Source of the DNA: Comamonas sp. Y33R10-2
GTDB taxonomy: Bacteria; Pseudomonadota; Gammaproteobacteria; Burkholderiales; Burkholderiaceae_C
DNA: 64,000 nt
Assembly: GCF_019355935.1 (NCBI RefSeq)
Contig: NZ_CP079925.1
Span: forward strand, 3,596,001 to 3,660,000
Direction: 5' to 3'
Under the pieces are notes generated by a model. It saw only the letters and a program-made list of their open reading frames with translations, searched no databases and was not told where the DNA came from. The position numbers and the translations under genes were made by a program. Positions 9,309 through 58,806 of the stretch are shown piece by piece. The stretch's first letter is position 1. Each line of letters begins with the position of its first letter.

Positions 9309-9313
9309 AGTAT

Positions 9314-9406: not shown

Positions 9407-9416
9407 GAGGTACGTT

Positions 9417-10307: not shown

Positions 10308-10358
10308 GAACAAGTCCTGGCTAGGGAGACAAGGAGGCAGCTTTAGGCGTTTTTGCCC

Positions 10359-10397
10359 TGAAGTCCATACAAATCAAGGACAAGCTGCTATTGAAAT
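10359..10397 (-). repeat. AT-rich comamonad mini-repeat (copy 1)
   Basis: Read on the minus strand: AATAGCAGCTTGTCCTTGAT then TTGTATGGACTTCAGG. The core GTCC...GGAC is an imperfect palindrome. Similar elements occur near 15.66, 18.61, 27.17, 36.87, 43.07 and 60.52 kb. Confidence 0.6.
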
Positions 10398-10446
10398 CAG
10401 CAAACAGTCTGAAAGCTGGACGCAAGGCCAAAGCCAGAGACAGCAA

Positions 10447-10538
10447 GCAAGAGCCGCCTCGCAGCGATGCTGTCGTCCCCCTCCCATAGCGCGAAGCGCG
10501 TAGAGAGAGGGGGAAGGCGCGCAGCGCTTCAGGGGGTG
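10447..10538 (-). repeat. GC-rich 3'-end repeat (copy A), after lysA
   Basis: Starting 7 nt after the lysA stop. On the minus strand it reads CACCCCCTGAAGCGCTGCGC, then GCCTTCCCCCTCTCT, an inner GCGC hairpin, GGGAGGGGGACG and GCGAGGCGGCTCTTGC. The CCCCCT and AGGGGG blocks pair around the inner hairpin. Related copies follow scpA, soxY, fccB and the second FCSD gene. Confidence 0.8.
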
Positions 10539-10545
10539 TTAGCTA

Positions 10546-11793: not shown

Positions 11794-11843
11794 GGCGTGC
11801 TTTGTGAAAATAGAAAAACTGGACGCATGATGCGTGGTTTTAT

Positions 11844-11892
11844 CTATTCAGTCGAATAGCTTGTTTTATGAGGTTCATTCATATTCGATATG
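11844..11892. promoter_or_regulatory. two dyads in the lysA/lysR intergenic region, likely LysR sites
   Basis: CTATTC-AGTC-GAATAG (11844-11859) and CATAT-TCG-ATATG (11880-11892) are perfect interrupted palindromes between the divergent starts. LysR-type regulators bind such dyads, so these are candidate recognition and activation sites. Confidence 0.5.
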
Positions 11893-11900
11893 CTTTAGAG

Positions 11901-12827: not shown

Positions 12828-12926
12828 ATGAGCCGATAGAGATTGGATTGGTTTGCTGTCACTCACTTCGATTGGATTTCTTATGTTGCAGTGCACAATC
12901 AGATGCTTGTAAGCAAGGAGTCCTGC

Positions 12927-43205: not shown

Positions 43206-45506
43206 ATGAACGAACAAAAAATTGCCTTCTACAAAGGCCCCGCGGGTGGCTGGGGTGCGCTTAACAGTGTCAAGAACACGTTGCTGCACCAGGATATTCC
43301 GCTCAAGGGCGCGAAAACGCTGCTCTCGGCCAATCAGCCCGATGGTTTTGACTGCCCGGGCTGCGCATGGCCTGACCGCAACCATGCATCCACATTTGAG
43401 TTTTGTGAAAATGGCGTCAAAGCGGTAGCGGCTGAAGCCACCGCTCGCCGCGCAGGCCCTGAGCTGTTTGCCCAATACACAGTCAGCGAGCTGGCGGCGC
43501 AAAGTGACTATTGGCTGGAAGACCAAGGCCGCCTGATCGAGCCTATGGTGTATGACGCGGCCAGTGACCGTTACCGTCCGATTGGCTGGGACGATGCGTT
43601 TGCCATCATCGCCAAGCACCTGAAGGCGCTGCCGGATCCGAATCAGGCGATTTTCTACACATCAGGCCGCGCCAGTAACGAGGCCGCGTTTTTGTACCAA
43701 TTGTTTGTGCGTGCGTACGGCACCAACAATTTCCCCGATTGCTCCAACATGTGCCATGAGCCTAGCGGCACCGCCATGCGAGAGCAGCTGGGTGTGGGCA
43801 AGGGGACGGTGGAACTGGTCGATTTTGAAAAGGCGGATGCCATCTTCATCTTTGGCCAAAACCCCGGCACCAACCATCCGCGCATGCTGGCGGAGCTGCG
43901 TGCGGCGCACAAACGCGGTGCTCGTATTGTCAGCTTTAACCCGCTGCGCGAGCGTGGTCTGGAGCGCTTTGCGGACCCGCAGGACAAGCTGGAGATGGCA
44001 ACGTTGGGCTCCTCGCCCATCAGCACGCATTACTTTCAGCTGCGCATAGGCGGCGATTTGGCTGCGCTCAGTGGCATGGTTAAACATGTGCTGGAGCAAG
44101 AAGCTGAGCGCGGCAATGTGCTGGACCACGCGTTTATTGCCGAGCACTGCGTTGGCCTGAGCGAGCTGCAAGCCAGCGTGCAGTCTGAGAGTTGGCAGGC
44201 GCTGCAAGAAGCCTCTGGCCTGACGCAGGCGCAGATGCGGGCAGCGGCCGATATTTACTTGGGCGCGAACAGCGTGATTGCCTGCTGGGGCATGGGCATT
44301 ACCCAGCACGAGCATTCGGTGGCCACCATTCAGATGATTAACAACTTGCTGCTGCTGCGCGGCCATATTGGCCGCCCGGGGGCTGGGCCTTGCCCGGTGC
44401 GCGGGCACAGCAATGTGCAGGGTGACCGCACCATGGGCATTTGGGAAAAGCCGCCAGCGGCCTTGCTCGATCGCATTCGGGATGTGTATGGCTTTGAGCC
44501 GCCGCGCGACTATGGGGTGGATGCGGTCGAGGCGATTAAGCAAATGCGCGCAGGCCAAGGCAAGGTGTTTTTTGCCTTGGGCGGCAACTTTGCAGCGGCG
44601 ACGCCAGATACCTATGAAACGTGGAAGGCGCTGCAGCGCTGTGATTTGACCGTGCATGTCACTACCAAGCTCAACCGCAGCCATGTTGTGCATGGCAAGC
44701 AGGCGCTGATCTTGCCTTGTCTGGGCCGCACCGAGATTGATATGCAAGGCGGCCAGCCGCAGGGCGTGACGGTGGAAGATTCGATGAGCATGGTGCATCT
44801 CTCCATGGGCATTAACCCACCAGCGTCGCCGCATTTGCTGTCTGAGCCCGCCATCGTGGCGCGGCTGGCGCATGCCACCTTGGGCGCAAGCAGCCACATT
44901 GATTGGCTGAGCTTGGCGCAGGACTACGCGCTGATTCGCGATGAGATTGAAAAAGTCTTTCCTGACTTTGCCAATTTCAACCAGCGCGTTGCCGTGCCAG
45001 GAGGCTTTCGCCTGCGCAATACCGCCAGTGAAAGAAACTGGCTAACGGCAACAGGCAAGGCCGCATTCTTTGCCCATGCACTGCCCAAAGAAACAGCGCA
45101 GCAGCGCGCACAAAAGCGGATGCCAGAGCAGCAGGTTTTTACCCTGCAAACCACGCGCTCGCATGACCAGTACAACACCACCATCTATGGCATGGACGAC
45201 CGCTATCGCGGCGTTTACGGCCAGCGCCGCGTGTTGTTCATGAATGCTGAAGATATTCGCGCACTGGGTATGCAGGATGGCGATTGGGTCAACATCCAAA
45301 CCGTGTGGGATGACGGCCAAGAACGCCGCGCGGATGGCTTCAAGCTCGTTGCCTATGACACACCCCGCGGCAACTTGGCCGCTTACTACCCGGAGACCAA
45401 CCCCTTGGTGCCGTTGACAGCGGTGGCGGTGCGGGCGGGCACGCCCACTTCTAAATCGATTCCGGTGATTTTGGAGCGGGCGACGGCTCCAGATTCGGAT
45501 GCCTAG
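43206..45506 (+). CDS. FdhF/YdeP-family molybdopterin oxidoreductase
   Basis: A 766-residue formate-dehydrogenase-like molybdoenzyme of the YdeP type. The N-terminal cysteines (CPGCAWPDRN, residues 50-59, and Cys67 in FEFCENG) may bind an Fe-S cluster. Cys183 in NMCHEPSG aligns with the selenocysteine of E. coli FdhF (U-H-G-P-S) and is the probable molybdenum ligand. IFGQNPGTNHPRM and GRPGAGPCPVRGHSNVQGDR are cofactor-binding segments. The physiological reaction is unknown. It starts at ATG 43206 after weak GGAGAG. FdhD, which sulfurates such enzymes, is not seen here. Confidence 0.9.
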   Translation: MNEQKIAFYKGPAGGWGALNSVKNTLLHQDIPLKGAKTLLSANQPDGFDCPGCAWPDRNHASTFEFCENGVKAVAAEATARRAGPELFAQYTVSELAAQSDYWLEDQGRLIEPMVYDAASDRYRPIGWDDAFAIIAKHLKALPDPNQAIFYTSGRASNEAAFLYQLFVRAYGTNNFPDCSNMCHEPSGTAMREQLGVGKGTVELVDFEKADAIFIFGQNPGTNHPRMLAELRAAHKRGARIVSFNPLRERGLERFADPQDKLEMATLGSSPISTHYFQLRIGGDLAALSGMVKHVLEQEAERGNVLDHAFIAEHCVGLSELQASVQSESWQALQEASGLTQAQMRAAADIYLGANSVIACWGMGITQHEHSVATIQMINNLLLLRGHIGRPGAGPCPVRGHSNVQGDRTMGIWEKPPAALLDRIRDVYGFEPPRDYGVDAVEAIKQMRAGQGKVFFALGGNFAAATPDTYETWKALQRCDLTVHVTTKLNRSHVVHGKQALILPCLGRTEIDMQGGQPQGVTVEDSMSMVHLSMGINPPASPHLLSEPAIVARLAHATLGASSHIDWLSLAQDYALIRDEIEKVFPDFANFNQRVAVPGGFRLRNTASERNWLTATGKAAFFAHALPKETAQQRAQKRMPEQQVFTLQTTRSHDQYNTTIYGMDDRYRGVYGQRRVLFMNAEDIRALGMQDGDWVNIQTVWDDGQERRADGFKLVAYDTPRGNLAAYYPETNPLVPLTAVAVRAGTPTSKSIPVILERATAPDSDA

Positions 45507-45788: not shown

Positions 45789-48098
45789 TCAAACTAGTGT
45801 TTTTAGCTTTGATGAATGAAGCGCCTGCAGCACCTTGTCTGGGGTGAAGGGCACTTCGTAAAAGCGCTGGCCTGTGGCGTCAAACAAGGCATTGGCCAGT
45901 GCGGCAGGGCCGGGCACGGAGGCCGATTCTCCGGCGCCCAAGGGCGGCTCGCTTTGCCTGTCCATGAGCAAAACCTCAATCGGCGGAATTTGCTGAAAGC
46001 CGATGATGGGGTAGCTGCCCCACTCACGGCTGGCTGCGCCTTGTGCGTTGAACTGGACTTGCTCCATCAGGCTGCGGCTTAGGGTCTGGATGACGTTGCC
46101 GTGAATTTGGTGCTGCACGCCAGCGGGGTTGACCATCATTCCCGTGTCTTGCCCTAAAACGATGCGTTTGACGGTGATGACGCCCGTTTCTGGGTGAACG
46201 CTGATGTCAATCACCCATGCCGCCCAAGCTGCACCAAAACCGGGAAAGCGGCTGTGAATATAGCGAGCGTAGGCTACGCCTCGGCCATGCAGCAGACCGT
46301 CTTCTGCGGGGGTGCCTCGGCTGCCGGCTGCGCCCGCAAGCCAGCTGGCTTTATCGGCAGTGGCTTGAATGAGCTCAATGGCGCGCTGGTCGTCTAAGTT
46401 CTGAATGCGGTAAGCCACAGGGTCTGCATGGGCGGCGTGGGCTAGCTCATCAATCATGCAGTCATGCGCAAAGGAGTTGGGCATGGCAGATACCCCGCGA
46501 ATCCACGAGGAGCGCACCAGCGGCGCCATATCGTGGCAGCGCACTTGCTGGCTGGGGTAGCGGTAGGGCGGCACGGCAGTGCGGTCGCCCATCTCCAGAG
46601 TTCGCGGCACACCTGAGACTTTGCCCGTCAGCAGCAGGGCCATCAGGGGCGCGTCGTTGGAGGGGTAGCTCACTGCAAAATCGTAGTTCAGCAGCTTGCC
46701 TTGTGCATCGATGCAGGCCTGCACATCCATGAGCTGGGCTGTGCCCTTGGGGTCCCATTGATTTTCTTGTTCTCGCGTGAGTTGCACACGCACCGGGGTG
46801 CCAACGGCCATCGATAAAAGAGCTGCATCGGCGCAGACATCGTCAGCGCAATTGCGGCCGTAGCAGCCTGCAGCTTCCATGCGCACAATTTCAATGTTTC
46901 CCTCGCCGAGCTGCACCAAACGGTTGAGGTCGGTGCGCAGCATGTGCGGGTTTTGGGTTCCGGCCCAGATGGTGAGTTGGCCTTTTTGAAAGCTGGCGAC
47001 TGCGCAAGATGGGCCAATGGAGGCGTGCATCTGGTAAGGCCAGACATAGCTGCGCTTGAGGGCGATGCTCTCACCGGCGCTGCTTGCGACCGGCTGATCC
47101 ACCAAAGGGCGCAAGCTGCTGGGGTTGGCGCGAATGGCTTTGCTAAGGTCGCCAAGGTCAGGCGCTGGTGGAATACTTTTCCACTGCACTTTAAGAGTGC
47201 GCATGGCTTCAATGGCTTGCTCTTCGCGGTCTGCGACCACGCCCACGAAGTCACCCTGAACCACGACTTGGACGCGCCCGGCCAGGTGCTCTACCGATGA
47301 GTGATCCACATTCAGCAGGCATTGGCCGATGAAGTCACCACCATCGCGCCCGGGGTGAGGGGGGCGAATGACACGGCCGTGGCGCATGCCGGGCAGGCGC
47401 ACATCGTGCACAAAGCTCAGTTGCCCTGTGGCCTTGGCGGGGATGTCAACGCGGGCGGTGCTGCGACCGACGATTTGATATTCCTCACTGGGCTTGAGCT
47501 TAACTTCCTGGTCTGGCGCTGCCAGCGTGAGTGGTGTGTTGGGCTGCTGGGCCAGCAATTGCCCAAAGCTGATCTGCCGCTCATCGTTAGGGCGTTTGAG
47601 GTAGATATTGCCTTGGCGTGTGCTTAGATATTGGACTTGGCAGTCAAAATGTATGGCAGCTAGAGCCAGCAAATGCTCGCGTGCCTGAGCGGCGGCGCGG
47701 CGCAGTGGAATGGCGGAGATTTGAATGCTGGCGCTGGCAATCGTAGGCCCTTGATTGGGCGCGGCACTGGTGTGGCCGAGCACCATGTGCACCTGCGGTA
47801 TCTCCACGCTGAGCTCTTCAGCCACGATTTGCGTAAGCGCTGTGCGTATGCCGGTGCCTAAGTCCACGTGGCCGTTGAAGGCCAGAATCTGCCAGTCATC
47901 TGCGCTGGCTTTCGGGGCGTTGCCCGTGCCTGCCAAGATCGCCACAAAAATCTCTGCATTCGACTGCACATAGTCTGTTGCACTGCCGGGTTGACCTGCT
48001 GCGGGCTTAGGTGGGGCCACAGGCTGGCGAACCACGAGCAAGGTTGCAGGACGTGAGTGCAACTGCTGGTGCAGAGCTTGCGGGTCAGGGAGATTCAT
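45789..48098 (-). CDS. molybdenum-binding catalytic subunit of nicotinate dehydrogenase (NicB/IorB-like)
   Basis: About 769 residues of the aldehyde-oxidase/isoquinoline-oxidoreductase large-subunit family. The N-terminal molybdopterin half contains FNGHVDLGTGIRTALTQ, followed by a hammerhead domain (PAKATGQLSFVHDV to about 290). The second half contains the pterin-loop-like AAGCYGRNCADDVC, SSWIRGVSAMPN and the catalytic glutamate motif EPPLGAGES near the C-terminus. It has no heme or [2Fe-2S] site, so it needs NicA and a cytochrome partner. It is the last gene of the nicE-nicD-nicX-nicF unit, after a 130-bp gap with a stem-loop. I infer it hydroxylates nicotinate at C6. Start taken as the ATG at 48098; a GTG six codons upstream is possible. 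Confidence 0.85.
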   Translation of the reverse strand: MNLPDPQALHQQLHSRPATLLVVRQPVAPPKPAAGQPGSATDYVQSNAEIFVAILAGTGNAPKASADDWQILAFNGHVDLGTGIRTALTQIVAEELSVEIPQVHMVLGHTSAAPNQGPTIASASIQISAIPLRRAAAQAREHLLALAAIHFDCQVQYLSTRQGNIYLKRPNDERQISFGQLLAQQPNTPLTLAAPDQEVKLKPSEEYQIVGRSTARVDIPAKATGQLSFVHDVRLPGMRHGRVIRPPHPGRDGGDFIGQCLLNVDHSSVEHLAGRVQVVVQGDFVGVVADREEQAIEAMRTLKVQWKSIPPAPDLGDLSKAIRANPSSLRPLVDQPVASSAGESIALKRSYVWPYQMHASIGPSCAVASFQKGQLTIWAGTQNPHMLRTDLNRLVQLGEGNIEIVRMEAAGCYGRNCADDVCADAALLSMAVGTPVRVQLTREQENQWDPKGTAQLMDVQACIDAQGKLLNYDFAVSYPSNDAPLMALLLTGKVSGVPRTLEMGDRTAVPPYRYPSQQVRCHDMAPLVRSSWIRGVSAMPNSFAHDCMIDELAHAAHADPVAYRIQNLDDQRAIELIQATADKASWLAGAAGSRGTPAEDGLLHGRGVAYARYIHSRFPGFGAAWAAWVIDISVHPETGVITVKRIVLGQDTGMMVNPAGVQHQIHGNVIQTLSRSLMEQVQFNAQGAASREWGSYPIIGFQQIPPIEVLLMDRQSEPPLGAGESASVPGPAALANALFDATGQRFYEVPFTPDKVLQALHSSKLKTLV

Positions 48099-48185
48099 GA
48101 ATACGGGCGGGTGCAAAACGGGGCGAGTCTTCAGCAGGGGCTGAAGCTGATTTGAGGCAGAGGTACAGATGTGCAGAGCTAGGCA

Positions 48186-48219
48186 GCACGAGCAAGCCTC
48201 TTATCAAGGCTTGCCGTGC
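48186..48219 (-). other. stem-loop between nicF and the molybdenum-subunit gene
   Basis: GCACG-A-GCAAGCC pairs with GGCTTGC-CGTGC (12 bp with one bulged base) in the 130-bp gap. No T run follows on the minus strand, so it may be a processing or stability site rather than a terminator. Confidence 0.6.
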
Positions 48220-48228
48220 CCTCAACTC

Positions 48229-48882
48229 TTACTGGCTAAGTGCGCTGGTCTGCGCAATGGCCTGCACCATGGGCATGACGGCAGCGTATTTTTGCGCCAT
48301 GTCGAACAGGTTGGCTTCATGCGGGCCAATAGCGCGGTCGCCGCAGCAGTCAGAAACGACCAGAGGTCTGAAGCCGGACTGCATGGCATCGACCACGCTA
48401 GAGCGCACGCAGCCGCTGGTCACGCAGCCAGCTACCAGCAAAGTCTGCACGCCGCGCTGAGCCAGCCATGGGGCGAGCATGGTGCCAAAGAAGGCCGAAG
48501 GCGTGCTCTTGCGCACCACATATTCGCCAGCAGCAGGAGCGAGTTCATCGACGATGGCGCTGGCGGGGCTGTCCTCTTTGAGGGTGAGCATGCCGGGCAC
48601 TTTGAGGCAGAAGATGTTGCTGTCTGCATCGTCGTCTGAAAACACAATGCGGCTGTGCGCCACCGGCCAGCCTTGGGCGCGGGCGTGCGCCAGCAGGTAC
48701 TGGGTTTGCTCAATGGCTTGGGGGATATTGCCACCGCCGAACACGGCAGGGTCTGCAAAGCCGTTCACGAAGTCGATGATGAGCAGGCCAAACGGGGCTT
48801 TCAGGGGCAGTGGTGTGCCAAAGCCCTGACGTGCATAGGCGGAGATGTCGCCCGAAATATTCTCACTGGGAATGGTTTGCAT
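48229..48882 (-). CDS. nicF: maleamate amidohydrolase
   Basis: A 217-residue isochorismatase-fold enzyme that hydrolyses maleamate to maleate and ammonia. The catalytic triad is visible as Asp37 (IIDFVNGF), Lys125 (VVRKSTPSAF) and Cys158 (VTSGCVRSS), with the family cis-peptide VAGCVTSGC. I use the ATG at 48882; a TTG twelve bases upstream is also possible. It follows nicX by 36 bp in the nicotinate operon and completes nitrogen release from the ring. Confidence 0.93.
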   Translation of the reverse strand: MQTIPSENISGDISAYARQGFGTPLPLKAPFGLLIIDFVNGFADPAVFGGGNIPQAIEQTQYLLAHARAQGWPVAHSRIVFSDDDADSNIFCLKVPGMLTLKEDSPASAIVDELAPAAGEYVVRKSTPSAFFGTMLAPWLAQRGVQTLLVAGCVTSGCVRSSVVDAMQSGFRPLVVSDCCGDRAIGPHEANLFDMAQKYAAVMPMVQAIAQTSALSQ

Positions 48883-48918
48883 GGGGGTGCTCAAAAATAG
48901 GGGCTCAAAAATCGGAGC

Positions 48919-49992
48919 TCACAAGAATTTCTTGCGGCGACTCGCTTGTGCAAGGCCGAAATCGTCTTGCACCACGCCGTCAATCACGGTGTATTCCGCG
49001 TCAATGGCGACGGAGCAGTTGCGCATGGGGATGTCGATGTGACACGCCGTGGTGCGGCTGCCTCCCGCTTCGTTGTTGGGGCCCATGGACCACAGGAAGT
49101 TGCCCTCAAAGGCGCGCGCATCCATGCCAATATGGGTTTCCTTGTTGTAGTGAGCCAGCATGGACCAGTGCGCCCGTGGCTGCAGACCCCAGCCGATATG
49201 CGAGACGGCATAGGCTTGCGGGTCTTCATACGATGCCATGTACTCCTTGAGCAAATCGGCCTGCAGGCCGCCTTGAATGCTGGTGACAAAGCCGTCTTTG
49301 ACCAGCAACTCAATGGGCTCGCTCACATAGTCTTTCATGGGCAAGAGAATGTCGCCTCTGTCCAAAATGATGCGACCTTGGCTTTGACCTTCGTTAGGCC
49401 AGGTCAGCACAAAGCCGCTGGGCCAGTGGTCCCAGCGGCCGGGCTCATCGACAAAACCGTATTCGCTGATGGCGGGGAACTCGCCGAGCTGGCATAGCAA
49501 ATCGGTGCCAGCAGCCGAGGTAATGCGCATTTGCTTGGCGGCTGAAATGCGCTTTGCCGCGGCTTGTACCCGCAGGCGATCGGCTTCGGTGGGCACGAGG
49601 CGACACAGCACTTCCGGGGGCTCAATGGCCAGCAAAATTTTGGTGCCGGTCTTCAAGATGTCGTGCTGCTCGGGGGAGAACAACAAGGTCATCAAGTCCA
49701 GCACCAGATCGCTTTCCTTGAGGGCGGCGATGGCGGCGTTATTGCCGGTCAGCGGCGTGACGCCAAGGTAGGCCAGAGAGTCCCGGCTCAGCGATTTCTC
49801 GGCATTGACGGGCGGAAGATCCAATCGATTGAGGCGCGCACCCATATCGCTGGCGGCGGTGATGGCGCAGCGCAGTGTTTGTGGGTGCGTGTCTGCACCG
49901 GTCAGAATCGTTACCGTCTGTCCGGGCTGCATTTTGGAGAGGCTCAGTACCTGTTTCCAGGCGTTCACAAGGTCGATATCACTGACGGACAT
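48919..49992 (-). CDS. nicX: 2,5-dihydroxypyridine 5,6-dioxygenase
   Basis: A 357-residue mononuclear Fe(II) dioxygenase opening 2,5-dihydroxypyridine to N-formylmaleamate. His265 (VSHIGWG), His318 and Asp320 (ACHIDIP) fall at exactly the numbers I recall for the iron ligands of Pseudomonas putida NicX, and Glu177, His189 and Arg293 are also at the recalled positions of pocket residues. This gapless match supports both the start and the function. Position 105 is Phe; I recall a His there in the P. putida enzyme but cannot confirm it. It lies between nicD and nicF. Confidence 0.95.
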   Translation of the reverse strand: MSVSDIDLVNAWKQVLSLSKMQPGQTVTILTGADTHPQTLRCAITAASDMGARLNRLDLPPVNAEKSLSRDSLAYLGVTPLTGNNAAIAALKESDLVLDLMTLLFSPEQHDILKTGTKILLAIEPPEVLCRLVPTEADRLRVQAAAKRISAAKQMRITSAAGTDLLCQLGEFPAISEYGFVDEPGRWDHWPSGFVLTWPNEGQSQGRIILDRGDILLPMKDYVSEPIELLVKDGFVTSIQGGLQADLLKEYMASYEDPQAYAVSHIGWGLQPRAHWSMLAHYNKETHIGMDARAFEGNFLWSMGPNNEAGGSRTTACHIDIPMRNCSVAIDAEYTVIDGVVQDDFGLAQASRRKKFL

Positions 49993-50022
49993 GCTGCTTT
50001 CCTGTCGTTCTCGGTGGAGTGG

Positions 50023-50862
50023 TTAGCGCACTGGGGCGCCCAGGAAATCACCAAACGCGGCGTAAAAGCCGGCTTCGTTATCCCAAGGGATCATGTGACC
50101 TGCATTGGCAACTCTGGTGTGCAGAGTTTGTGGGGCCAGTTGCTGCCATTCAGCGACATCACTGTCGCGAACCACATCACCGCGCTCAGCCGTAATGAGC
50201 AGCATGGGCAGCTTGATGCTTGGCAGGTTGGCGTGGATGTCGTCGGCTCCAAAGTCTTCAAAGCTTTGCACAATGGCGCTCTCATAGCAGGTGTGCAGCC
50301 ATTGCGCGCGCAGCTGGCGTTGCTCCAGCGTCCAGCTGGGGCAGAACTTGAGCATGTCTTGTGCATCCATGCCTTCATTGGCTTGGCGAATCGAGTCCAC
50401 ATACCAAGGCAAAGCCGCAGGGTAAGCGCGGCGCTCGGGGCCGGAAACGGGAGGGTCCACAATCACCAGCTTGCTCAGACCTGCAGGCTGGCTGCTGGCT
50501 GCGCGAATGGCAATGCGACCGCCCATGGAGTGGCCGACCAGTGCGTAGTTTTGCAGTCCTAGGGCTTGGGCAAACTCCACGACATCGGCCGCTTGTGCGT
50601 TCAGGCCGTAGTCCAGTCCGGGGCCTGAGGAGGAAAGTCCGCGCCCGCGCACATCAAGCACGTAGGTGTCGAACTGCTGGCCAAGGTGTTCGGCCACAAA
50701 GCCCCATGTCACCGCTGGGCTGGTGATGCCGGGGATCAGGATGACGGCGGAGCGCTGCGCGCGCGTGCCATCGCTGCCGCCATAGCGCAGATAGTGCTGA
50801 CGGATGCCATTGGCGTGAATTTGAGCGCCATATTGAAAGCAAGACTGAGAAGCTTGTGTCAT
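50023..50862 (-). CDS. nicD: N-formylmaleamate deformylase
   Basis: A 279-residue alpha/beta-hydrolase producing maleamate and formate. The nucleophile is Ser112 in VGHSMGGRIA, the oxyanion region is IPGITSPAVTWG, and the catalytic His is in NAGHMIPWDN near the C-terminus. The order nicE-nicD-nicX-nicF with gaps of 18-36 bp shows a tight operon. No formate dehydrogenase of the usual type accompanies it. Confidence 0.93.
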   Translation of the reverse strand: MTQASQSCFQYGAQIHANGIRQHYLRYGGSDGTRAQRSAVILIPGITSPAVTWGFVAEHLGQQFDTYVLDVRGRGLSSSGPGLDYGLNAQAADVVEFAQALGLQNYALVGHSMGGRIAIRAASSQPAGLSKLVIVDPPVSGPERRAYPAALPWYVDSIRQANEGMDAQDMLKFCPSWTLEQRQLRAQWLHTCYESAIVQSFEDFGADDIHANLPSIKLPMLLITAERGDVVRDSDVAEWQQLAPQTLHTRVANAGHMIPWDNEAGFYAAFGDFLGAPVR

Positions 50863-50880
50863 TGAATGCTCCTCTTGTGC

Positions 50881-51651
50881 TTACAGCTTTTCGGGTGCGT
50901 ATGCACCAGACAGCAATGCGCCGGCGCCGGGCACCACAGGATCAAGACCTAGCTCTGTGAGGATGGAGTAGGTGGTGGCGATGGCGGCCGTCAGCACGGG
51001 CTTGCCAGTCATTGCCTCGACCTCAGAGACGGCAGGAAGAGATGGCATTTGCACGCAGGCAGACAAAACGATGACGTCTGCATCTGCATAGTTCATGCTG
51101 GCCACGATGCCGGGCAGCTTGGCGGGGTCGTGACGGCCCACGTCCAGGTTGTCTGGGATTTCTAGAGCGCGCCAGTCAACGATCTCGAAGCCTTCAGCGG
51201 CGATGTAGTCCATGACCAGTTTGGTCAAAGGAATCATGTAAGGCGCAACCAAGGCGATTTTTTTGGCCTTCATCACTTTGAGTGCCTCTACCAAAGCGCC
51301 AGCACTGGTAATGACGGGAGCAGTTGCGCCGTTGTCCACAGTGCGCTCGGTCAGGCGCTTTTGCGATTCACGGTGATAGCCGTGACCCATGGCCATGATG
51401 GCGACCAAGCAGGCATAGCCCAGAACATCTACGCGCGCATCGCTCAGTTCTAGCGCGCAGCGGTCGCTTTCAGCATCCATGGCGGCCAGCTCTTCCTTGA
51501 CGACCTTCTTCATGCGCATGCGGCTGGAGTGAAAGGTGAAGCGGTCGTTGGGGCGCAGTGTGGAGTGGGCGTTCAGCATGGCCGGAACTTCAGTCTCCAT
51601 CGTGGTGTTGGAGCTGGGAACGATCTGGCCGATACGGTATGTCTTAGTCAT
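50881..51651 (-). CDS. nicE: maleate cis-trans isomerase
   Basis: A 256-residue Asp/Glu-racemase-fold enzyme turning maleate into fumarate, the entry to the TCA cycle. The two catalytic cysteines are Cys81 (GYACLVAIM) and Cys199 (LSACVQMPS). PSSNTTMETE at the N-terminus is the substrate-binding signature. It is the first gene of the minus-strand operon and starts 17 bases from a palindromic candidate NicR operator. Confidence 0.95.
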   Translation of the reverse strand: MTKTYRIGQIVPSSNTTMETEVPAMLNAHSTLRPNDRFTFHSSRMRMKKVVKEELAAMDAESDRCALELSDARVDVLGYACLVAIMAMGHGYHRESQKRLTERTVDNGATAPVITSAGALVEALKVMKAKKIALVAPYMIPLTKLVMDYIAAEGFEIVDWRALEIPDNLDVGRHDPAKLPGIVASMNYADADVIVLSACVQMPSLPAVSEVEAMTGKPVLTAAIATTYSILTELGLDPVVPGAGALLSGAYAPEKL

Positions 51652-51667
51652 TTCTCAATCGCTTAAT

Positions 51668-51683
51668 GAAGTGTGTACGCTTC
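51668..51683. promoter_or_regulatory. candidate NicR operator at the nicE promoter
   Basis: GAAGTGTGTACGCTTC, a 16-bp near-palindrome with one mismatched pair class, 17 bases before the nicE start. It shares GTxTACGCTT with the site near nicC. Confidence 0.55.
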
Positions 51684-51803
51684 TATTAAGCAATTAAAGT
51701 GCCATGTTATGCGCTCTAATTTTATATAAAAAGTTCATTATTAGTGCATAAGGGCACCAGTATGGTGCGATTATTTATAGTCTATTCACTGATTTGGTGA
51801 TTT

Positions 51804-51833
51804 TTGATAAAAAACAAATAGAGCGTATACGCT
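51804..51833 (+). promoter_or_regulatory. nicC promoter with overlapping candidate NicR operator
   Basis: TTGATA (51804-51809), 16-nt spacer, TATACG (51826-51831). The perfect palindrome AGCGTATACGCT (51822-51833) covers the -10 element, the arrangement expected for repression by a MarR-type protein. The surrounding 51652-51926 region is AT-rich and has no gene. Confidence 0.6.
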
Positions 51834-51878
51834 TTAAGTTTGTGGAAAGTTGGCACGCTTCATGCTGATAGTGATTAA

Positions 51879-53084
<1,206 letters not shown>

Positions 53085-53097
53085 ATAAGCCGCTTTA

Positions 53098-53148
53098 GGC
53101 CAATTTATTGGCCATAGCTGTGGCAAAGGTCCTCAAGCCTTTGCCACA
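53098..53148 (+). other. two stem-loops between nicC and nicA
   Basis: GGCCAA-TTTA-TTGGCC (53098-53113) and TGTGGCAAAGG, 8-nt loop, CCTTTGCCACA (53119-53148). Both are perfect; neither has a clear T run. They may set the nicC to nicAB expression ratio. Confidence 0.65.
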
Positions 53149-53180
53149 CTTAGCCCTGTGATTAGCAGGGAGTGAATTGA

Positions 53181-53732
53181 ATGTGTGAGAGTGGGTATCA
53201 GTTGACTGACGCAGCGCAAATACGATCGGATAGCGAGCAGCAAGCGCCTTGCATCCCGTTATATGTGAACGGGAAAAGGTGTGAGGTTCAGGCATCGCCG
53301 CGCACGGCCTTGCTGCATGTGCTGCGCAACGATCTTGAACTCAACGGCCCCAAATATGGCTGCGGTTTGGGTGAGTGCGGTGCCTGCACGGTTTTGGTCG
53401 ATAGCGTGGCGGCTCGCTCTTGCGTGGTACCTCTGCGTGTCGCAGTGGGCCGTGAAGTAACTACGCTTGAAGGCCTTGGTAGTTTTGAGCAGCCGGGCCC
53501 GACCCAGCAAGCTTTTATCCAGTGTCAGGCAGCGCAATGCGGCTACTGCCTGAACGGAATGATCATGACGGTAGAGGCCTTGCTGCGCCGCAACCCCAAT
53601 CCGTCAGAAGAAGAAATTCGCAGCGAACTGCACTACAACCTTTGCCGCTGCGGAACCCATGTCGAAATCATGCAGGCGGCATTAATGGCTGTGCAACTGC
53701 GCCAGCGCGCTCAACAAGCAAAGGGGTTGTGA
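53181..53732 (+). CDS. nicA: nicotinate dehydrogenase [2Fe-2S] subunit
   Basis: A 183-residue small subunit of the molybdenum hydroxylase. The plant-type cluster ligands are in YGCGLGECGACTVLV with a later Cys (about 60-81), and the second cluster ligands are in QCGYCLNG and NLCRCGTH, four cysteines in each set. It has a 25-residue N-terminal extension compared with the shortest relatives. AGGGAG precedes the ATG. Its stop overlaps the nicB ATG by one base (TGATG), so they are translationally coupled. It passes electrons from the molybdenum site towards the hemes. Confidence 0.94.
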   Translation: MCESGYQLTDAAQIRSDSEQQAPCIPLYVNGKRCEVQASPRTALLHVLRNDLELNGPKYGCGLGECGACTVLVDSVAARSCVVPLRVAVGREVTTLEGLGSFEQPGPTQQAFIQCQAAQCGYCLNGMIMTVEALLRRNPNPSEEEIRSELHYNLCRCGTHVEIMQAALMAVQLRQRAQQAKGL

Positions 53733-56614
53733 TGAGTGATATTGCTGCGCGCATGCCCCGCCTTGATGTTGCGACCGGCCGTGATCTGCCTTCGGATATG
53801 TTGCATGGCAAAGTCCTGCACCCGTCTCAGATGAGTTGGAGCGGCCTGCGCTATGAAGGCCGTGAGCTTTGCGCGGTGAATGGCGAGGAAGTCCGCCGCA
53901 TGCCCGGCGTGGTGGCGCTCGTTCAGCAAGATCATTTTGTTGGCGTGGTGGCGATGACGCCAGTGCACGCCAGTCAAGCCAGCGAACGCTTGGCTTTGCA
54001 ATGGTCACGCCCAGATTCTTTGGCCGCAAAGCGAGCGCCGAGTCCACCGCTTGAGACGAATGCGTATACATGGCGCATCGCTTCAGCGAAGGCCAATGCC
54101 AATGACAAGGCCATCGTCTGGGTTCTCAATGATCGAGCCAGCGTGTGGATTGCGCCAGTTACGCCGGATTTCAAGCAAGCGCTGCAAGCGGAGCTGGCAA
54201 GCCTATTGGCCATGCCGCTGCAGTCGTTGGATATTTTTGAGGATGCATCAAGCGCACCCGTAGCGCGCGAGATGGATTTGCTCGATGCCGCTGCGGATGC
54301 GGCACTGCTATCCAAACATGTGCAGCGCCCGGTGTCAGTGCAGTGCACTGAACATGCCGGTGATGATCAAGTCTTGACTCTGAAGGTGGCCGATGCTGGT
54401 GCTGCTGGAGCAGGTATTGCTTCCCCCATTGTGTGGGCATCAGATGCGCCTTGGTCGCAGCGGCCTAGCCGGGCGCGCTTGCTGACTCAAAAGAGTCTGA
54501 TTGAAGCCGTTGCTGGCGCTAGCGTTCAAGAAGCTGGCAGTGTGGGGCGTGCGCTTATCAACAGCAGCCTGTCGGTAGCCAGTGTTCATGATCTCAATGC
54601 CGCGCAGGTGTTTGCCCATGAAAGTGAACTGGCGCAAATAGCAGTGCAGCAAGGGCAGCACCCTATCGAGGCGCGACTAGAGCAGATGCCAAAGGGGCGA
54701 GGCCGCGACCTTGCATTGGCTGTGTTGGAGCAGTCGGGTGGCTTGCTCAAAGATCCCAATGATGACGCGGTGCAGATACCCGGTTATCTATCGGGTCGAG
54801 GTTTTGCGAGCTCTCAAGTGGAGTGCCTGGATGCCAAGGGCGAACCCCAAACGGTTTGGAGCGCTTGGGTGGCTGACGTGGCAGTGAATGTCAGCACCGG
54901 TGATATTTCGGTCACTCGAGTGGTGGCAGGCCATGATGTGCAAAGCCTGCAAGTTGCCCAGCAGGCAAGCATGCAAGTCATCAGCAGCCAGAATGCGCCG
55001 CAGATGCTCGAAGGCGCGCAAAAGCTATTGCTGGATGGCTTTGCTGCAGAGGACTGGCGCGCAGACAATTCTCAGTCCAATGCGTTGGCCAGCATAGTGG
55101 GGCAAAAGGTGGGCACTGATGTGCTCAAAGCCTCGCCGGGCGATGTGGTGGCGCATGGCCGTTTGGCAGATGAAGGCGTCACCACGCTGCCTGCTGCTGC
55201 TGCCATTGCCAATGCGGTGCAGCAAGCCACGGGTGTGCGACTGCGCACAGTGCCGCTAGATCCACAAGCGCTGCGTTTGGCTTTGAGCTTGGAGCCTAAG
55301 CCGAGCAAAGCGTTGGCAGCCAAGCGTTTAGGCTGGCTGGGTGCAGGAGCCGCTGCCGTGGTGGGCATGGCGGCTATGGCTTGGCCGTTCAAACCTGCTT
55401 TGCCTTTGACCGATGGAGCCGATGTCAGTTTGTACTCTGCACAGGCTCTGGAGCGCGGGCGACTGGTGGCTGCTGCGGGTGACTGCATTGTCTGCCACAC
55501 CGCCCCCGGCGGTAAAGAAAATGTGGGCGGTCTGGGCTTGCCCACGCCGTTCGGCACCATCTTCACCACCAACATCACGCCGGATAACGAGACTGGCATT
55601 GGCCGCTGGTCATACGCCGCGTTTGAGCGCGCTATGCGCCATGGTGTGCATCAAGATGGGCGTCAGCTCTACCCTGCGTTTCCCTACACTGCGTTTGCCA
55701 AGATGAACGAGGGTGATATGCAGGCTTTGTATGGCTACCTCATGTCTCAGCCGGCAGTGAAGGCAGAAGCGCCAAAGACCGAGCTGGTCTTTCCCTACAG
55801 TGTTCGCAGCTCACTGGCAGGTTGGAATTTGTTGTTTCACGATGCCAAGCCCTTTGAGGCTGATCGCAGCAAAAGCGTTGAATGGAATCGCGGCTCGTAT
55901 TTGGTCAATGGTGCTGGCCACTGCTCGGCATGCCATACCCCGCGCAATGCCTTGGGTGCAGAAAAAAGCGGTATTCAAAACTACTTGGCAGGTGGTGAGG
56001 CGGAAGGCTGGACTGCACCTGCGATCAACAAACTAGGCAGCGGCCCGAGCCCGTGGAGCAAAGACGATCTGGTTCGCTATATGCGCACAGGTTATTCGGC
56101 CAATCACGGCGTTGCCGCAGGCCCTATGGCGCCTGTCATTCATGGCTTGGCGCAGTTGCCTCAAAGTGATGTGCAGAGCATTGCCACGTATTTGCTGGAC
56201 TTGCCCGGTCAGCCAAAGCAGGTGGATGCCGCTTTAACGGTCAATGCAGCGCCTGCCGCAGCAGCACCTGTGAAAGACCAAAGCCTGCGCAATGGCGAGC
56301 GCATGTACCAAAACGCGTGTGCGGTGTGTCATGAAGCAGGTGCCGGTCCCACGCTGTTTGGTGTCAAGCCTGACCTGAGCAAAAACACTAGCTTGTATGC
56401 CAGCACGCCGCAAAACCTGATTCAGGTGGTGCTGCACGGAATTCAAGAGCCCGCCAATGACGCACTCGGTCATATGCCGGGTTTCAAAGACAGTTTTGAC
56501 AATCAGCAAATCGATGATCTGCTGGGGTATTTGCGTGGGCGATTTGCCCCAGAGGAGAAGGCTTGGCCAGACAGCAAACCACTGATTGAACAACTGCGCA
56601 CGCCTTTGCATTAA
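53732..56614 (+). CDS. nicB: NicB-like triheme cytochrome with a degenerate molybdenum-hydroxylase domain
   Basis: A 960-residue protein. Residues 1-525 resemble the second part of the molybdenum subunit at 45.8-48.1 kb, starting at its hammerhead domain. Matching landmarks are DAAADAALLSKHVQRPVSV against DVCADAALLSMAVGTPVRV, FAHESELAQIAVQQGQHPIEA against FAHDCMIDELAHAAHADPVAY, and IANAVQQATG against LANALFDATG. The first ~200 residues of the domain, the pterin loop (GCYGRN becomes SAPVAREM) and the GAGES motif (becomes ADEGV) are missing or altered. A membrane helix follows (about 531-552), then three heme sites: CIVCH (585), CSACH (731), CAVCH (863). I infer that it relays electrons and anchors the complex, while catalysis is done by the other subunit. 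The symbol follows P. putida NicB, which is longer. An upstream in-frame ATG at 53522 lies inside nicA. Confidence 0.87.
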   Translation: MSDIAARMPRLDVATGRDLPSDMLHGKVLHPSQMSWSGLRYEGRELCAVNGEEVRRMPGVVALVQQDHFVGVVAMTPVHASQASERLALQWSRPDSLAAKRAPSPPLETNAYTWRIASAKANANDKAIVWVLNDRASVWIAPVTPDFKQALQAELASLLAMPLQSLDIFEDASSAPVAREMDLLDAAADAALLSKHVQRPVSVQCTEHAGDDQVLTLKVADAGAAGAGIASPIVWASDAPWSQRPSRARLLTQKSLIEAVAGASVQEAGSVGRALINSSLSVASVHDLNAAQVFAHESELAQIAVQQGQHPIEARLEQMPKGRGRDLALAVLEQSGGLLKDPNDDAVQIPGYLSGRGFASSQVECLDAKGEPQTVWSAWVADVAVNVSTGDISVTRVVAGHDVQSLQVAQQASMQVISSQNAPQMLEGAQKLLLDGFAAEDWRADNSQSNALASIVGQKVGTDVLKASPGDVVAHGRLADEGVTTLPAAAAIANAVQQATGVRLRTVPLDPQALRLALSLEPKPSKALAAKRLGWLGAGAAAVVGMAAMAWPFKPALPLTDGADVSLYSAQALERGRLVAAAGDCIVCHTAPGGKENVGGLGLPTPFGTIFTTNITPDNETGIGRWSYAAFERAMRHGVHQDGRQLYPAFPYTAFAKMNEGDMQALYGYLMSQPAVKAEAPKTELVFPYSVRSSLAGWNLLFHDAKPFEADRSKSVEWNRGSYLVNGAGHCSACHTPRNALGAEKSGIQNYLAGGEAEGWTAPAINKLGSGPSPWSKDDLVRYMRTGYSANHGVAAGPMAPVIHGLAQLPQSDVQSIATYLLDLPGQPKQVDAALTVNAAPAAAAPVKDQSLRNGERMYQNACAVCHEAGAGPTLFGVKPDLSKNTSLYASTPQNLIQVVLHGIQEPANDALGHMPGFKDSFDNQQIDDLLGYLRGRFAPEEKAWPDSKPLIEQLRTPLH

Positions 56615-56835
56615 ACGTGCAGCGCAGTTGCGGCAACCTTGTTGTTGCTGCTAAAAAAGGCTTTGTGAACAGAGCCTGAAATTCCATCTGAATGGGTGGC
56701 AAGCTGGTATGAGAATTGCGTGCTGAAACTCTACTTTTAACCAGATAGCTACTCGACAGAAATAGATCTTTGAACGCAGGCACTTATCTCAGCTTGAGGG
56801 CTGAAAAAGAGACTGGTTTCAAAAGTGAAGAGGGA

Positions 56836-56855
56836 GGTAGCTAGAGATAGCTACC
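56836..56855. promoter_or_regulatory. palindrome upstream of nicT
   Basis: GGTAGCTA-GAGA-TAGCTACC, perfect 8-bp arms, 68 bp before the nicT start. TAGCTACT also occurs at about 56746. It may be a hairpin in the leader or a regulator site; it does not resemble the GTATAC sites. No gene is present in 56615-56923. Confidence 0.45.
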
Positions 56856-56923
56856 GGAGCGAGTGGCGAGAATGGGCGTGGGCCCGCTCACTGGATTTTC
56901 AACGACTCAAAGGGATGGACTTC

Positions 56924-58240
56924 ATGTCATCTGGACTTATCTCAGTAGAACAAGGTCTGCAAACTGCAGGCGTAGGGAAATTTCAGTACCGGCTTTTTGT
57001 AATTTTTGGCTTGGTATGGCTCGCAGATGCGATGCAGGTGCTGTCCATCGGCTTTAGCGCGCCATCAATTGCCAAGAGCTTTGGCATCACTGTGCCTGAA
57101 GCTTTGCAAACCGGTACGTTCTTCTTTATCGGTATGCTGCTGGGGGCCTTTGCCTTCGGTCGTCTGGCTGACCGTATTGGTCGCCGTCCAGTGCTGCTGG
57201 TGGCGGTGGTGATTGATGCTTGTGCGGGTGTTGCATCAGCGTTTGCACCTGATTTGACGTGGCTGCTGGTACTGCGCTTTTTGACCGGTATCGGTGTGGG
57301 CGGAACACTGCCTGTGGACTACACCATGATGGCCGAGTTCTTGCCTAGCAAGCGCCGTGGTCGCTGGTTGGTGTGGCTGGAGTCGTTCTGGGCCATTGGT
57401 ACCATTTTCTTGGCTGTGCTGGCACTGATCGCCGTGAGCTGGGGTGAAGATGCTTGGCGCCTGATTTTCTTCGTGACCGGCGTTCCTGCTTTGATTGGTG
57501 TGGCTCTGCGTTTCTACATTCCTGAGTCGCCGATGTTCCTCAACCGCAACGGCAAGTCCAAAGAGGCTCGCGCAGTGCTTCAGCGCGTGGCGGATGTGAA
57601 CGGTGCCAAGGTGCAGATCCCTGAATTGCAGCCTGAAAAGCAAGAGCGCAAATCCGTTTTTGCCCTGTTCAATGCTGAACTGCGCCGCCGCAGCATCGCC
57701 TTGTTTGCCGCTTGGGGCTTGATCTCGATTGCCTACTACGGCGTGTTTGTTTACCTGCCTGTGAAGCTGGGCACCGAAGGCTTTGCGTTTATGCGTGGTC
57801 AGGTGTTCTTGGTGATTTTGGCGCTGGTGCAGCTGCCCGGTTTTGCTCTGTCCGCCTACGGTGTGGAGCGCTGGGGCCGCAAGCCAACGCTGATTGGCTT
57901 CTTGCTGCTGAGCGCTGTGGGTTGCATGTTGTATAGCTTGGGTACATCGCCCGCATTGGTGGTGGGCTCTACGCTTCTGATGAGCTTTGCTTTGCTGGGT
58001 ACTTGGGGCGCTTTGTATGCCTTCACGCCTGAGGTCTATCCTACGGAGCTGCGTGCCAGCGGCATGGGCATGTCGGGTGCTGTGGCTCGCTTTGGTGGTC
58101 TGTTTGCGCCGGCCATCATTGCACCTGTGATGAGCACGCACTTCACGCTGGCTTTGGCGATGCTGGCAGCCATGCTGGTGGGCGGCGCCATCGCGATTGC
58201 TGCGGTGGATGTGGAGTCTCGCGACCGCGTTCTGGATTAA
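56924..58240 (+). CDS. nicT: MFS transporter, probable nicotinate/6-hydroxynicotinate importer
   Basis: A 438-residue permease with 12 membrane helices of the aromatic-acid:H+ symporter/sugar-transporter type. The cytoplasmic loop 2-3 motif is GRLADRIGRRP, and PESPMFL follows helix 6. I use the second Met (56924), which places AAAGGG nine bases upstream, not the ATG at 56915. The gene follows nicB, faces nicR and ends at a strong terminator. The context indicates uptake of nicotinate, but substrate choice is an inference from the cluster. Confidence 0.9.
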   Translation: MSSGLISVEQGLQTAGVGKFQYRLFVIFGLVWLADAMQVLSIGFSAPSIAKSFGITVPEALQTGTFFFIGMLLGAFAFGRLADRIGRRPVLLVAVVIDACAGVASAFAPDLTWLLVLRFLTGIGVGGTLPVDYTMMAEFLPSKRRGRWLVWLESFWAIGTIFLAVLALIAVSWGEDAWRLIFFVTGVPALIGVALRFYIPESPMFLNRNGKSKEARAVLQRVADVNGAKVQIPELQPEKQERKSVFALFNAELRRRSIALFAAWGLISIAYYGVFVYLPVKLGTEGFAFMRGQVFLVILALVQLPGFALSAYGVERWGRKPTLIGFLLLSAVGCMLYSLGTSPALVVGSTLLMSFALLGTWGALYAFTPEVYPTELRASGMGMSGAVARFGGLFAPAIIAPVMSTHFTLALAMLAAMLVGGAIAIAAVDVESRDRVLD

Positions 58241-58344: not shown

Positions 58345-58806
58345 TTAATCCTGAGGGTCATCGAGCATTTTTTTGAGCAAAAAATCCAGCGCAAATCGCT
58401 CGGCAGGGTTGAGTTTTCCATAAGTACTCTCTGTGATTTGCATGGCAATGGGCTCGACTACTTTGATCAGCTCCAGCCCCTTAGGCGTCAGCGTGAGAAC
58501 CACTTTGCGCTTGTCGTTGGCGTCAAGATCCACATTCAGAAGATCGCGTTGTTTGAGACGATCAACGACCCCGCGAATGGTGGCTTGATCGATGACCGCC
58601 GCTTTGACGATTTCGGCCAAAGAGCTGCCGCTGTGCTCGCGAACGGTGCACAGCACCACGAACTGCGCCGTGGTGAGCTGTGCGTTAGGAATTGACTGTT
58701 GAAAAAACGATGAATGCCGCTGATAAGCGCGTCGCAGCAAATGCCCGATTTGTGCGGAAACTTGATAGTTTTCTTGTGGGGATGCGTGGTTGGCTTCTTG
58801 ACTCAT
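58345..58806 (-). CDS. nicR: MarR-family regulator of nicotinate genes
   Basis: A 153-residue MarR protein. The winged helix-turn-helix spans about 45-110 (TTAQFVVLCTVREHSGSSLA, then KAAVIDQATIRGVVDRLKQR and the wing DLDANDKRKVVLTLTP), between dimerisation helices. In P. putida, NicR represses nic operons until 6-hydroxynicotinate binds. Position beside nicT and the palindromes at nicE/nicC support the same role here. Confidence 0.9.
   Translation of the reverse strand: MSQEANHASPQENYQVSAQIGHLLRRAYQRHSSFFQQSIPNAQLTTAQFVVLCTVREHSGSSLAEIVKAAVIDQATIRGVVDRLKQRDLLNVDLDANDKRKVVLTLTPKGLELIKVVEPIAMQITESTYGKLNPAERFALDFLLKKMLDDPQD

What the first reader, a model, noticed from the sequence alone, without database searches (positions are those of the whole stretch)
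45789..56614. Nicotinate dehydrogenase split into a catalytic Mo subunit and a cytochrome carrying a decayed Mo domain
Seen directly: the triheme NicB-like protein (53732-56614) has about 525 N-terminal residues that align with the second part of the Mo subunit at 45789-48098, but it lacks the first Mo half, the pterin-loop motif (GCYGRN replaced by SAPVAREM) and the GAGES motif (ADEGV instead). The separate subunit keeps GHVDLGTGI, GCYGRN and GAGES. Known: P. putida NicB is a single protein of about 1187 residues combining an active Mo domain and three hemes. Inference: a heterotrimer in which a pseudo-Mo domain serves as a docking scaffold between NicA, the catalytic subunit and the hemes. 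I recall a three-gene nicotinate dehydrogenase reported from Comamonas testosteroni, so the subunit split may be known, but the pseudo-enzyme origin of the cytochrome subunit seems underappreciated.
Basis: partly seen in the sequence, partly recalled or inferred. Interest (0 to 1): 0.78.

Follow-up and report, generated by a model that had tools for sequence, protein, structure and literature searches.

The report
Cytochrome subunit carrying a dead molybdenum-enzyme domain
In this bacterium the enzyme that starts vitamin B3 (nicotinate) breakdown seems to be made from two gene copies that each kept a different half of one ancestral fused protein, so the electron-carrying subunit still bears a non-catalytic molybdenum domain, probably kept as a docking platform.

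Summary

The three-protein split is already in print (NicA/NicB1/NicB2). I found no statement that NicB2 carries a dead Mo domain, but two key papers are not held. The C. testosteroni JA1 enzyme fits a different type, NdhSLM, by subunit size.

New here: fused NicB and the split exclude each other (0 of 62 fused loci have a second Mo gene in the DNA held; 14 of 17 split loci have one, the other 3 on short or edge contigs). NicB1 sits inside fused NicB on a quick tree, and decay is graded. Best reading: a fused NicB duplicated and each copy lost a different half. The dead domain evolves fast but under purifying selection (dN/dS 0.25-0.45), probably as a cytoplasmic dock for NicB1-NicA. Docking, topology and a single split are inferred.

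The parts
45789..48098 (-). nicB1: catalytic Mo subunit, 769 aa from ATG at 48098 (ORF open from TTG at 48116)
   Evidence: MoCoBD_2 and MoCoBD_1; 62-75% identity to the other 119 listed homologues; all three motifs in 118 of 120 listed
47847..47876 (-). NicB1 motif NGHVDLGTGI (P0002 residues 81-90), in the N-terminal Mo half that NicB2 lacks
46851..46868 (-). NicB1 motif GCYGRN (P0002 residues 417-422); not kept in NicB2
45924..45938 (-). NicB1 motif GAGES with the catalytic Glu (P0002 residues 727-731; role of this Glu recalled from the family)
48229..48894 (-). nicF-like (isochorismatase family, maleamate amidase)
   Evidence: order as in the Delftia nic operon
48919..49992 (-). nicX-like (2,5-dihydroxypyridine dioxygenase)
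   Evidence: 50% identity to the annotated Pantoea enzyme
50023..50862 (-). nicD-like (alpha/beta hydrolase, N-formylmaleamate deformylase)
   Evidence: order
50881..51651 (-). nicE-like (maleate isomerase, Amdase family)
   Evidence: order
51882..53084 (+). nicC-like FAD monooxygenase
   Evidence: 60% identity to the Pantoea nic-cluster enzyme
53181..53732 (+). nicA: [2Fe-2S] subunit; its stop overlaps the nicB2 start by one base
   Evidence: Fer2 and Fer2_2; sequence
53732..56614 (+). nicB2: pseudo-Mo domain, hydrophobic segment and triheme cytochrome c, 960 aa
53732..55306 (+). pseudo-Mo domain of NicB2 (residues 1-525)
   Evidence: profile match to NicB1 242-772; fold; motif loss in listed homologues
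55157..55219 (+). NicB2 residues 476-496, the block replacing the GxGE loop; commonest pattern G-x-L-x-[LV]-D-G-V-x-T-LPAAAAIANA
   Evidence: Gly482 where NicB1 has Glu730, 120 of 120; T485-A495 each 120 of 120
55334..55396 (+). hydrophobic segment about 50 residues before heme 1 (about residues 535-555), K/R-rich on its N side: possible N-in/C-out anchor
   Evidence: aligned with the N-terminal segment of 8gy3_A; hydropathy (weak) and charge
55484..55498 (+). heme 1 CxxCH (585-589)
55922..55936 (+). heme 2 CxxCH (731-735)
56318..56332 (+). heme 3 CxxCH (863-867)
56825..58240 (+). nicT-like MFS transporter
   Evidence: order
58345..58806 (-). MarR regulator (NicR/BpsR-like by position)
   Evidence: order

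Best explanation
A split nicotinate dehydrogenase. NicB1 (Mo, active) with NicA ([2Fe-2S]) hydroxylates nicotinate in the cytoplasm. NicB2 is a former full NicB whose Mo domain lost its N-terminal half and its cofactor/catalytic motifs; it is now a non-catalytic domain joined through a membrane anchor to a periplasmic triheme cytochrome. History: a fused Mo-cytochrome NicB was duplicated; one copy lost the cytochrome (NicB1), the other lost Mo function (NicB2), leaving each dependent on the other. The dead domain stays because it tethers NicB1-NicA to the membrane cytochrome, either by replacing one partner of an ancestral Mo-Mo dimer or by direct docking. Shown: architecture, motif loss, fold, complementarity, purifying selection. 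Supported but not settled: NicB1 descending from fused NicB. Inferred: a single duplication, topology, docking, electron route.
For: Mutual exclusion in 80 loci of one genome scan: 62 fused NicB, none with a second Mo ORF in the DNA held (48 of the 62 hold more than 8 kb upstream and 9 kb downstream); 17 NicB2, 14 with separate NicB1 and 3 (L079, L081, L082) on short or edge contigs; 1 Ndh type. In 61 genomes (own included) NicB2 occurs in 9; a NicB1 of 74% identity or more in 8 of those and 0 of the other 52. Mo tree rooted on NdhL: NicB1 (26 rows) one group (SH-aLRT 91, not starred) inside fused NicB, next to three Burkholderia/Paraburkholderia fused genes (99*). Halomonas-type pseudo-Mo domains fall among fused NicB and NicB1 rather than beside NdhL (nodes 89-90), on a stem of 2.62 changes per column. 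Graded decay: Pfam MoCoBD_1 113.8 bits in a fused NicB; 39.0, 24.4 and 20.9 in three chosen Halomonas-type NicB2; none reported in the window or Paraburkholderia protein. dN/dS 0.25-0.45 pseudo-Mo, 0.10-0.21 cytochrome, 0.13-0.24 NicB1. Charge pattern around the segment in most members of every class. TRR[QN]LLK: 12 of 12 distinct NdhL, 0 of 120 NicB1, 0 of 48 fused NicB.
Against: All trees are quick ones. NicB2 is not one group on the cytochrome tree (3 changes; one origin not rejected, AU p 0.24), and NicB2 cytochromes do not sit with the Burkholderia fused genes that NicB1 joins on the Mo tree. With pseudo-Mo rows added, support for NicB1 as one group falls to 17, and placing pseudo-Mo outside fused+NicB1 is not rejected (p 0.18). 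The anchor is weakly hydrophobic in NicB2 (KD19 of 1.6 or more in 29 of 120 and 5 of 64; fused 43 of 48, NdhM 12 of 12), no more so than stretches inside the Mo-like domain itself (56 of 120, 18 of 64). This topology puts Fe-S clusters and hemes on opposite membrane faces with no known carrier between. Docking has no direct evidence: no complex was modelled. Burkholderia-type NicB2 align to the window protein only from about residue 291, so much of the domain is dispensable there.
Confidence: 0.57

Rival explanations
1. The NicB2 N-terminal domain is a passive relic: a leftover passenger in front of the cytochrome, with no present function.
For: It evolves about twice as fast as the cytochrome and NicB1; Burkholderia-type proteins have lost its N-terminal part; the Ndh-type cytochrome does without it.
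Against: dN/dS 0.25-0.45 in 15 pairs of genomes, none near 1; an 11-residue block (T485-A495) invariant in 120 of 120 rows; at least 436 residues precede heme 1 in all 29 NicB2 loci (ORFs as read), and the ANA...ATG helix pattern is found in 27 of 29.
Confidence: 0.2
2. The pseudo-Mo domain has a new biochemical role, for example binding nicotinate or 6-hydroxynicotinate as a sensor, or holding NicB1 for cofactor insertion, rather than docking.
For: In the window's type the former catalytic loop is rebuilt into a near-invariant DGVxTLPAAAAIANA block rather than simply drifting.
Against: Part of that block is the same helix that follows GxGES in NicB1 (AAIANA), so it may be structural only; the loop is variable in Halomonas- and Burkholderia-type NicB2; the whole N-terminal Mo half that would close a pocket is missing.
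Confidence: 0.1
3. NicB1 belongs to another enzyme (it is called an aldehyde dehydrogenase in one Delftia annotation) and NicA-NicB2 act alone.
For: It lies on the opposite strand about 5.6 kb away; Delftia nicB1 is called 'an aldehyde dehydrogenase'.
Against: NicB2 has no recognisable Mo site; NicB1 is about 55% identical to the Mo domain of three fused NicB; co-occurrence; it follows the nicE-D-X-F row in the published Delftia order and in a Paraburkholderia plasmid.
Confidence: 0.04

Closest known systems
NicA/NicB1/NicB2 of Delftia acidovorans Cs1-4 (PMC4572682, passages read), Burkholderia gladioli and Bordetella (PMC10269826, passages read)
   Same: Same three proteins; the Delftia gene order as listed there (marR, nicT, nicB2, nicA, nicC, nicE, nicD, nicX, nicF, nicB1) is that of the window
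   Different: The passages say nothing of a dead Mo domain in NicB2; Burkholderia-type NicB2 keeps even less of it
Fused NicB (Pseudomonas, Bradyrhizobium, Pantoea, Mesorhizobium loci; P. putida KT2440 NicB itself recalled, not fetched)
   Same: Mo domain, anchor and three hemes; median length 1185 aa in 48 proteins
   Different: One protein with an intact Mo site and no second Mo gene in the DNA held (62 of 62 loci)
NdhS/NdhL/NdhM (Comamonas testosteroni JA1 enzyme, by subunit size only; PMC10331938, passages and section 10 read)
   Same: Fe-S, Mo and triheme subunits; Mo subunit about 51% identical to NicB1
   Different: Cytochrome only 439-442 aa with no Mo-like domain; Mo subunit starts with a Tat-like TRR[QN]LLK (12 of 12 distinct); genes adjacent
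Gluconobacter membrane-bound aldehyde dehydrogenase, PDB 8gy3
   Same: Best solved relative by sequence of the cytochrome part (8gy3_A, E 2e-90) and of NicB1 (8gy3_C), and top of the fold match for the NicB2 Mo-like part
   Different: Its cytochrome chain (444 aa) carries no Mo-like domain

Membership tests
Tripartite nicotinate dehydrogenase NicA/NicB1/NicB2 | Three genes (Fe-S, Mo, cytochrome) inside a nic cluster in the published Delftia order | tested here: met
Tripartite nicotinate dehydrogenase NicA/NicB1/NicB2 | 6-hydroxylation of nicotinate | not testable with these tools
   needs a growth or enzyme assay
Xanthine oxidase family, catalytic Mo subunit (NicB1) | MoCoBD domains plus GxGE loop with catalytic Glu | tested here: met
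Xanthine oxidase family, catalytic Mo subunit (NicB2 N-terminal domain) | Same fold and sequence ancestry | tested here: met
   Pfam MoCoBD_1 above cut-off in relative P0263 (39.0 against 27), below cut-off in P0248 and P0300
Xanthine oxidase family, catalytic Mo subunit (NicB2 N-terminal domain) | Cofactor motifs and catalytic Glu | tested here: not met
   0 of 120 and 0 of 64 listed carry any of three motifs; Gly at the Glu position in 120 of 120 of the window's type; Halomonas type variable there without gaps: D 27, G 18, E 8, A 5, S 4, N 1, unread 1 of 64
Fused NicB (P. putida type) | Intact Mo domain and three hemes in one chain | tested here: not met
   N-terminal Mo half and motifs missing in NicB2
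NdhSLM (JA1 type) | Tat-like Mo subunit and a cytochrome of about 47 kDa without extra domain | tested here: not met
   NicB2 is 101.7 kDa; TRR[QN]LLK in 0 of 120 listed NicB1; apart from NicB2, the best other listed NicB1 relative in this genome is 26% identical
Membrane c-type cytochrome subunit (8gy3_A, fructose and alcohol dehydrogenase type) | Three CxxCH, aligned over the length of the chain | tested here: met
Membrane c-type cytochrome subunit (8gy3_A, fructose and alcohol dehydrogenase type) | Hydrophobic anchor before the first heme | tested here: inconclusive
   segment present and flanked by charge but weakly hydrophobic in NicB2

The most novel reading that the evidence does not exclude
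A fused molybdo-cytochrome was split by duplication and complementary loss, and the dead Mo domain became a cytoplasmic adaptor that is needed only where the catalytic subunit stays inside the cell. Where the Mo subunit is exported by Tat (NdhSLM), the cytochrome has no such domain. If so, fused NicB and the split enzyme both pass electrons from cytoplasmic Fe-S clusters to periplasmic hemes through a single anchor, by a route I have not seen described.
Probability: 0.26. Interest if true: 0.7.

Novelty: new variant of a known kind. Interest (0 to 1): 0.5.

Why it matters
If right, it is a widely distributed case of a two-domain redox enzyme divided between two duplicates, with different stages of decay alive in Halomonas, Comamonas and Burkholderia relatives. 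It sharpens the annotation of NicB2 (often just 'c-type cytochrome') and NicB1 ('aldehyde dehydrogenase' in places), separates this enzyme from the C. testosteroni JA1 enzyme with which it is easily confused, and predicts that a construct with only nicA and nicB2 would be inactive. It also exposes an open question for fused NicB: how electrons reach hemes that seem to lie across the membrane.

Tried and rejected
Rejected: NicB2 N-terminus as an unrelated domain. NicB2 as a full NicB truncated in this one genome only (184 of 184 listed homologues lack the motifs). E481 of 'ADEGV' as a retained catalytic Glu: it is one residue off, and Asp in 118 of 120 rows. JA1 NdhSLM as the same system.

Led nowhere: first genome-contig scan with P0001 alone (no relative). 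Pseudomonas BYT-1 plasmid hit (L068): an ORF with no N-terminal Mo half beside transposases, set aside. Control for 'Tat export goes with a plain cytochrome': 20 further Mo-subunit loci; 11 of 20 flagged Tat-like by my simple rule, none with a NicB2-like cytochrome beside it (one, L166, has a 312-aa ORF with two CxxCH), so the control is uninformative. My first Tat rule found only 9 of 12 NdhL (and 4 of 120 NicB2); the explicit motif finds 12 of 12 distinct NdhL and 0 of 120 NicB1, 0 of 48 fused, 0 of 184 NicB2, while a looser RR.[FLM]L finds 1 of 48 fused. Paper searches for a dead Mo domain: nothing on it in the listings. PNAS 2008 (P. putida nic cluster) and J Bacteriol 2018 (Bordetella) are not held, so a statement there cannot be excluded. 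A search for the 8gy3 paper did not list it.

Rows dropped: the protein lists are the best 120 of 567, 7826 and 176 hits; of P0244-P0310 I counted P0244-P0307 (64 of 67) as Halomonas type and left out P0308-P0310. For the trees I removed 19 fused loci as near-duplicates and two NicB1 rows (L117 cut by the locus end, L067 read in two frames). For one search I also left out L120 and L146 (long branches) and thinned to 22 fused, 16 NicB1, 5 NdhL and 7 pseudo-Mo rows, all of Halomonas type. The genome sets overlap: equal contig lengths suggest that L079 is G036, L081 is G014 and L151 is from G025's genome; G014 does hold NicB1, on another contig.

Full report
What is there. The window holds a nic (nicotinate) cluster. 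On the minus strand, from right to left: nicE, nicD, nicX, nicF and nicB1. On the plus strand: nicC, nicA, nicB2 and an MFS transporter, followed by a MarR regulator on the minus strand. The gene order agrees with that listed for Delftia acidovorans Cs1-4 (PMC4572682, passage) and with an annotated Paraburkholderia plasmid apart from the transporter and regulator. nicA and nicB2 overlap by one base. The finding's coordinates are right, but its Mo gene is on the minus strand.

Graded decay. Pfam MoCoBD_1 scores 113.8 bits in a fused NicB (P0311), 39.0, 24.4 and 20.9 in three chosen Halomonas-type NicB2, and is not reported for the window or the Paraburkholderia protein (cut-off 27). Two Halomonas-type NicB2 still read GLGRHCGDDAAVDAAL where NicB1 reads GCYGRNCADDVCADAAL. 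Burkholderia-type NicB2 (807 aa in Paraburkholderia) align to the window protein only from about residue 291.

Complementarity. 62 carry a fused NicB and none of the 62 has a second Mo ORF in the DNA held; 48 of them hold more than 8 kb upstream and 9 kb downstream. 17 carry NicB2: 14 have a separate NicB1, and the other 3 lie on short or edge contigs (L079, L081, L082). 1 is of Ndh type. In 61 genomes, own included, NicB2 is in 9 and NicB1 (74% identity or more; in G029 in two pieces of 77 and 66%) in 8 of these and in 0 of the other 52; the ninth, G036, has NicB2 at a contig end. The two sets overlap in part. In 369 genomes of the class the pseudo-Mo domain matched in 4; two are NicB2 (own genome and G423), the other two are partial matches.

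History. On a quick Mo tree rooted on NdhL all 26 NicB1 form one group (SH-aLRT 91, not starred) within fused NicB, joined to three Burkholderia/Paraburkholderia fused genes (99*). So NicB1 most likely descends from a fused NicB that lost its cytochrome. When Halomonas-type pseudo-Mo domains are added, they fall among fused NicB and NicB1 (nodes 89-90), on a stem of 2.62 changes per column, far longer than other stems; support for NicB1 as one group drops to 17; grouping pseudo-Mo with NicB1 is not rejected (p 0.43), nor is a place outside fused+NicB1 (p 0.18). On the cytochrome tree NicB2 needs 3 label changes, one origin is not rejected (p 0.24), and NicB2 does not sit with the Burkholderia fused genes. 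One duplication followed by complementary loss is the simplest reading; several splits, or an older split, are not excluded.

Constraint. In six same-genus genomes (five for NicB1; the window's own genes not among them) dN/dS is 0.25-0.45 for the pseudo-Mo domain, 0.10-0.21 for the cytochrome and 0.13-0.24 for NicB1 (Nei-Gojobori). Median pairwise identity in 120 rows each is 53%, 75% and 73%. The domain is less constrained than its neighbours, but constrained. Residues T485-A495 are each invariant in 120 of 120.

Topology (inferred). A segment about 50 residues before heme 1 in NicB2, fused NicB and NdhM has its N side more positive in 119 of 120 and 62 of 64 NicB2, 40 of 48 fused and 12 of 12 NdhM. 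In 8gy3_A the aligned segment is at the chain start. It is clearly hydrophobic in NdhM (12 of 12) and fused NicB (43 of 48) but only in 29 of 120 and 5 of 64 NicB2, no more than stretches inside the Mo-like domain (56 of 120, 18 of 64). c-type hemes are attached in the periplasm (established knowledge), so a segment that exports them must be there, and what precedes it should be cytoplasmic. The motif TRR[QN]LLK is in 12 of 12 distinct NdhL, 0 of 120 NicB1 and 0 of 48 fused NicB. These are simple rules, not a trained predictor. A control with 20 further Mo loci was uninformative.

How it probably works. NicB1 and NicA hydroxylate nicotinate in the cytoplasm, where NicT delivers it and NicC uses the product. 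NicB2's dead domain holds them at the membrane, and electrons end on the triheme. The first part rests on motifs and pathway knowledge; docking is inference; how electrons cross is unexplained, and the same puzzle applies to fused NicB.

What is known. The tripartite NicA/NicB1/NicB2 make-up is in print for Burkholderia gladioli and Bordetella (PMC10269826, passages) and Delftia (PMC4572682, passages). A review of nicotinate dehydrogenase (PMC10331938, passages and section 10) does not describe a dead Mo domain in what I read. It gives the C. testosteroni JA1 enzyme as 21, 82 and 46 kDa, which fits NdhSLM of same-genus genomes (20.7-22.5, 82.0-84.5 and 46.7-47.7 kDa) and not NicB2 (101.7 kDa). 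Searches showed no report of the dead domain; two of the most relevant primary papers are not held.

Odds.

Noticed in passing
window 43206-45506 (+): FdhF/YdeP-family molybdopterin oxidoreductase next to nicB1, of another Mo-enzyme superfamily.
   Followed up: no
G000:C1:3585926-3588004, outside the window: A further Mo-hydroxylase large subunit, 26% identical to NicB1, about 8 kb before the window.
   Followed up: no
L067 (G029), NicB1 region 10411-12918: NicB1 is read in two overlapping frames, as by a frameshift in that assembly or gene; left as it is and dropped from the tree.
   Followed up: no
L068 (Pseudomonas sp. BYT-1 plasmid) 8650-10995: NicB ORF with intact later Mo part and hemes but no N-terminal half, near IS elements: looks like a remnant, not a NicB2.
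   Followed up: partly
L088, titled Frankia sp. RB7: Its fused NicB pairs with a Bradyrhizobium one on both trees (100*), suggesting transfer or a mislabelled/contaminated assembly.
   Followed up: no
P0098 and P0102 (NicB2, 1123 and 1125 aa): NicB2 homologues about 165 residues longer than the window's, with hemes later in the chain; extra sequence not examined.
   Followed up: no
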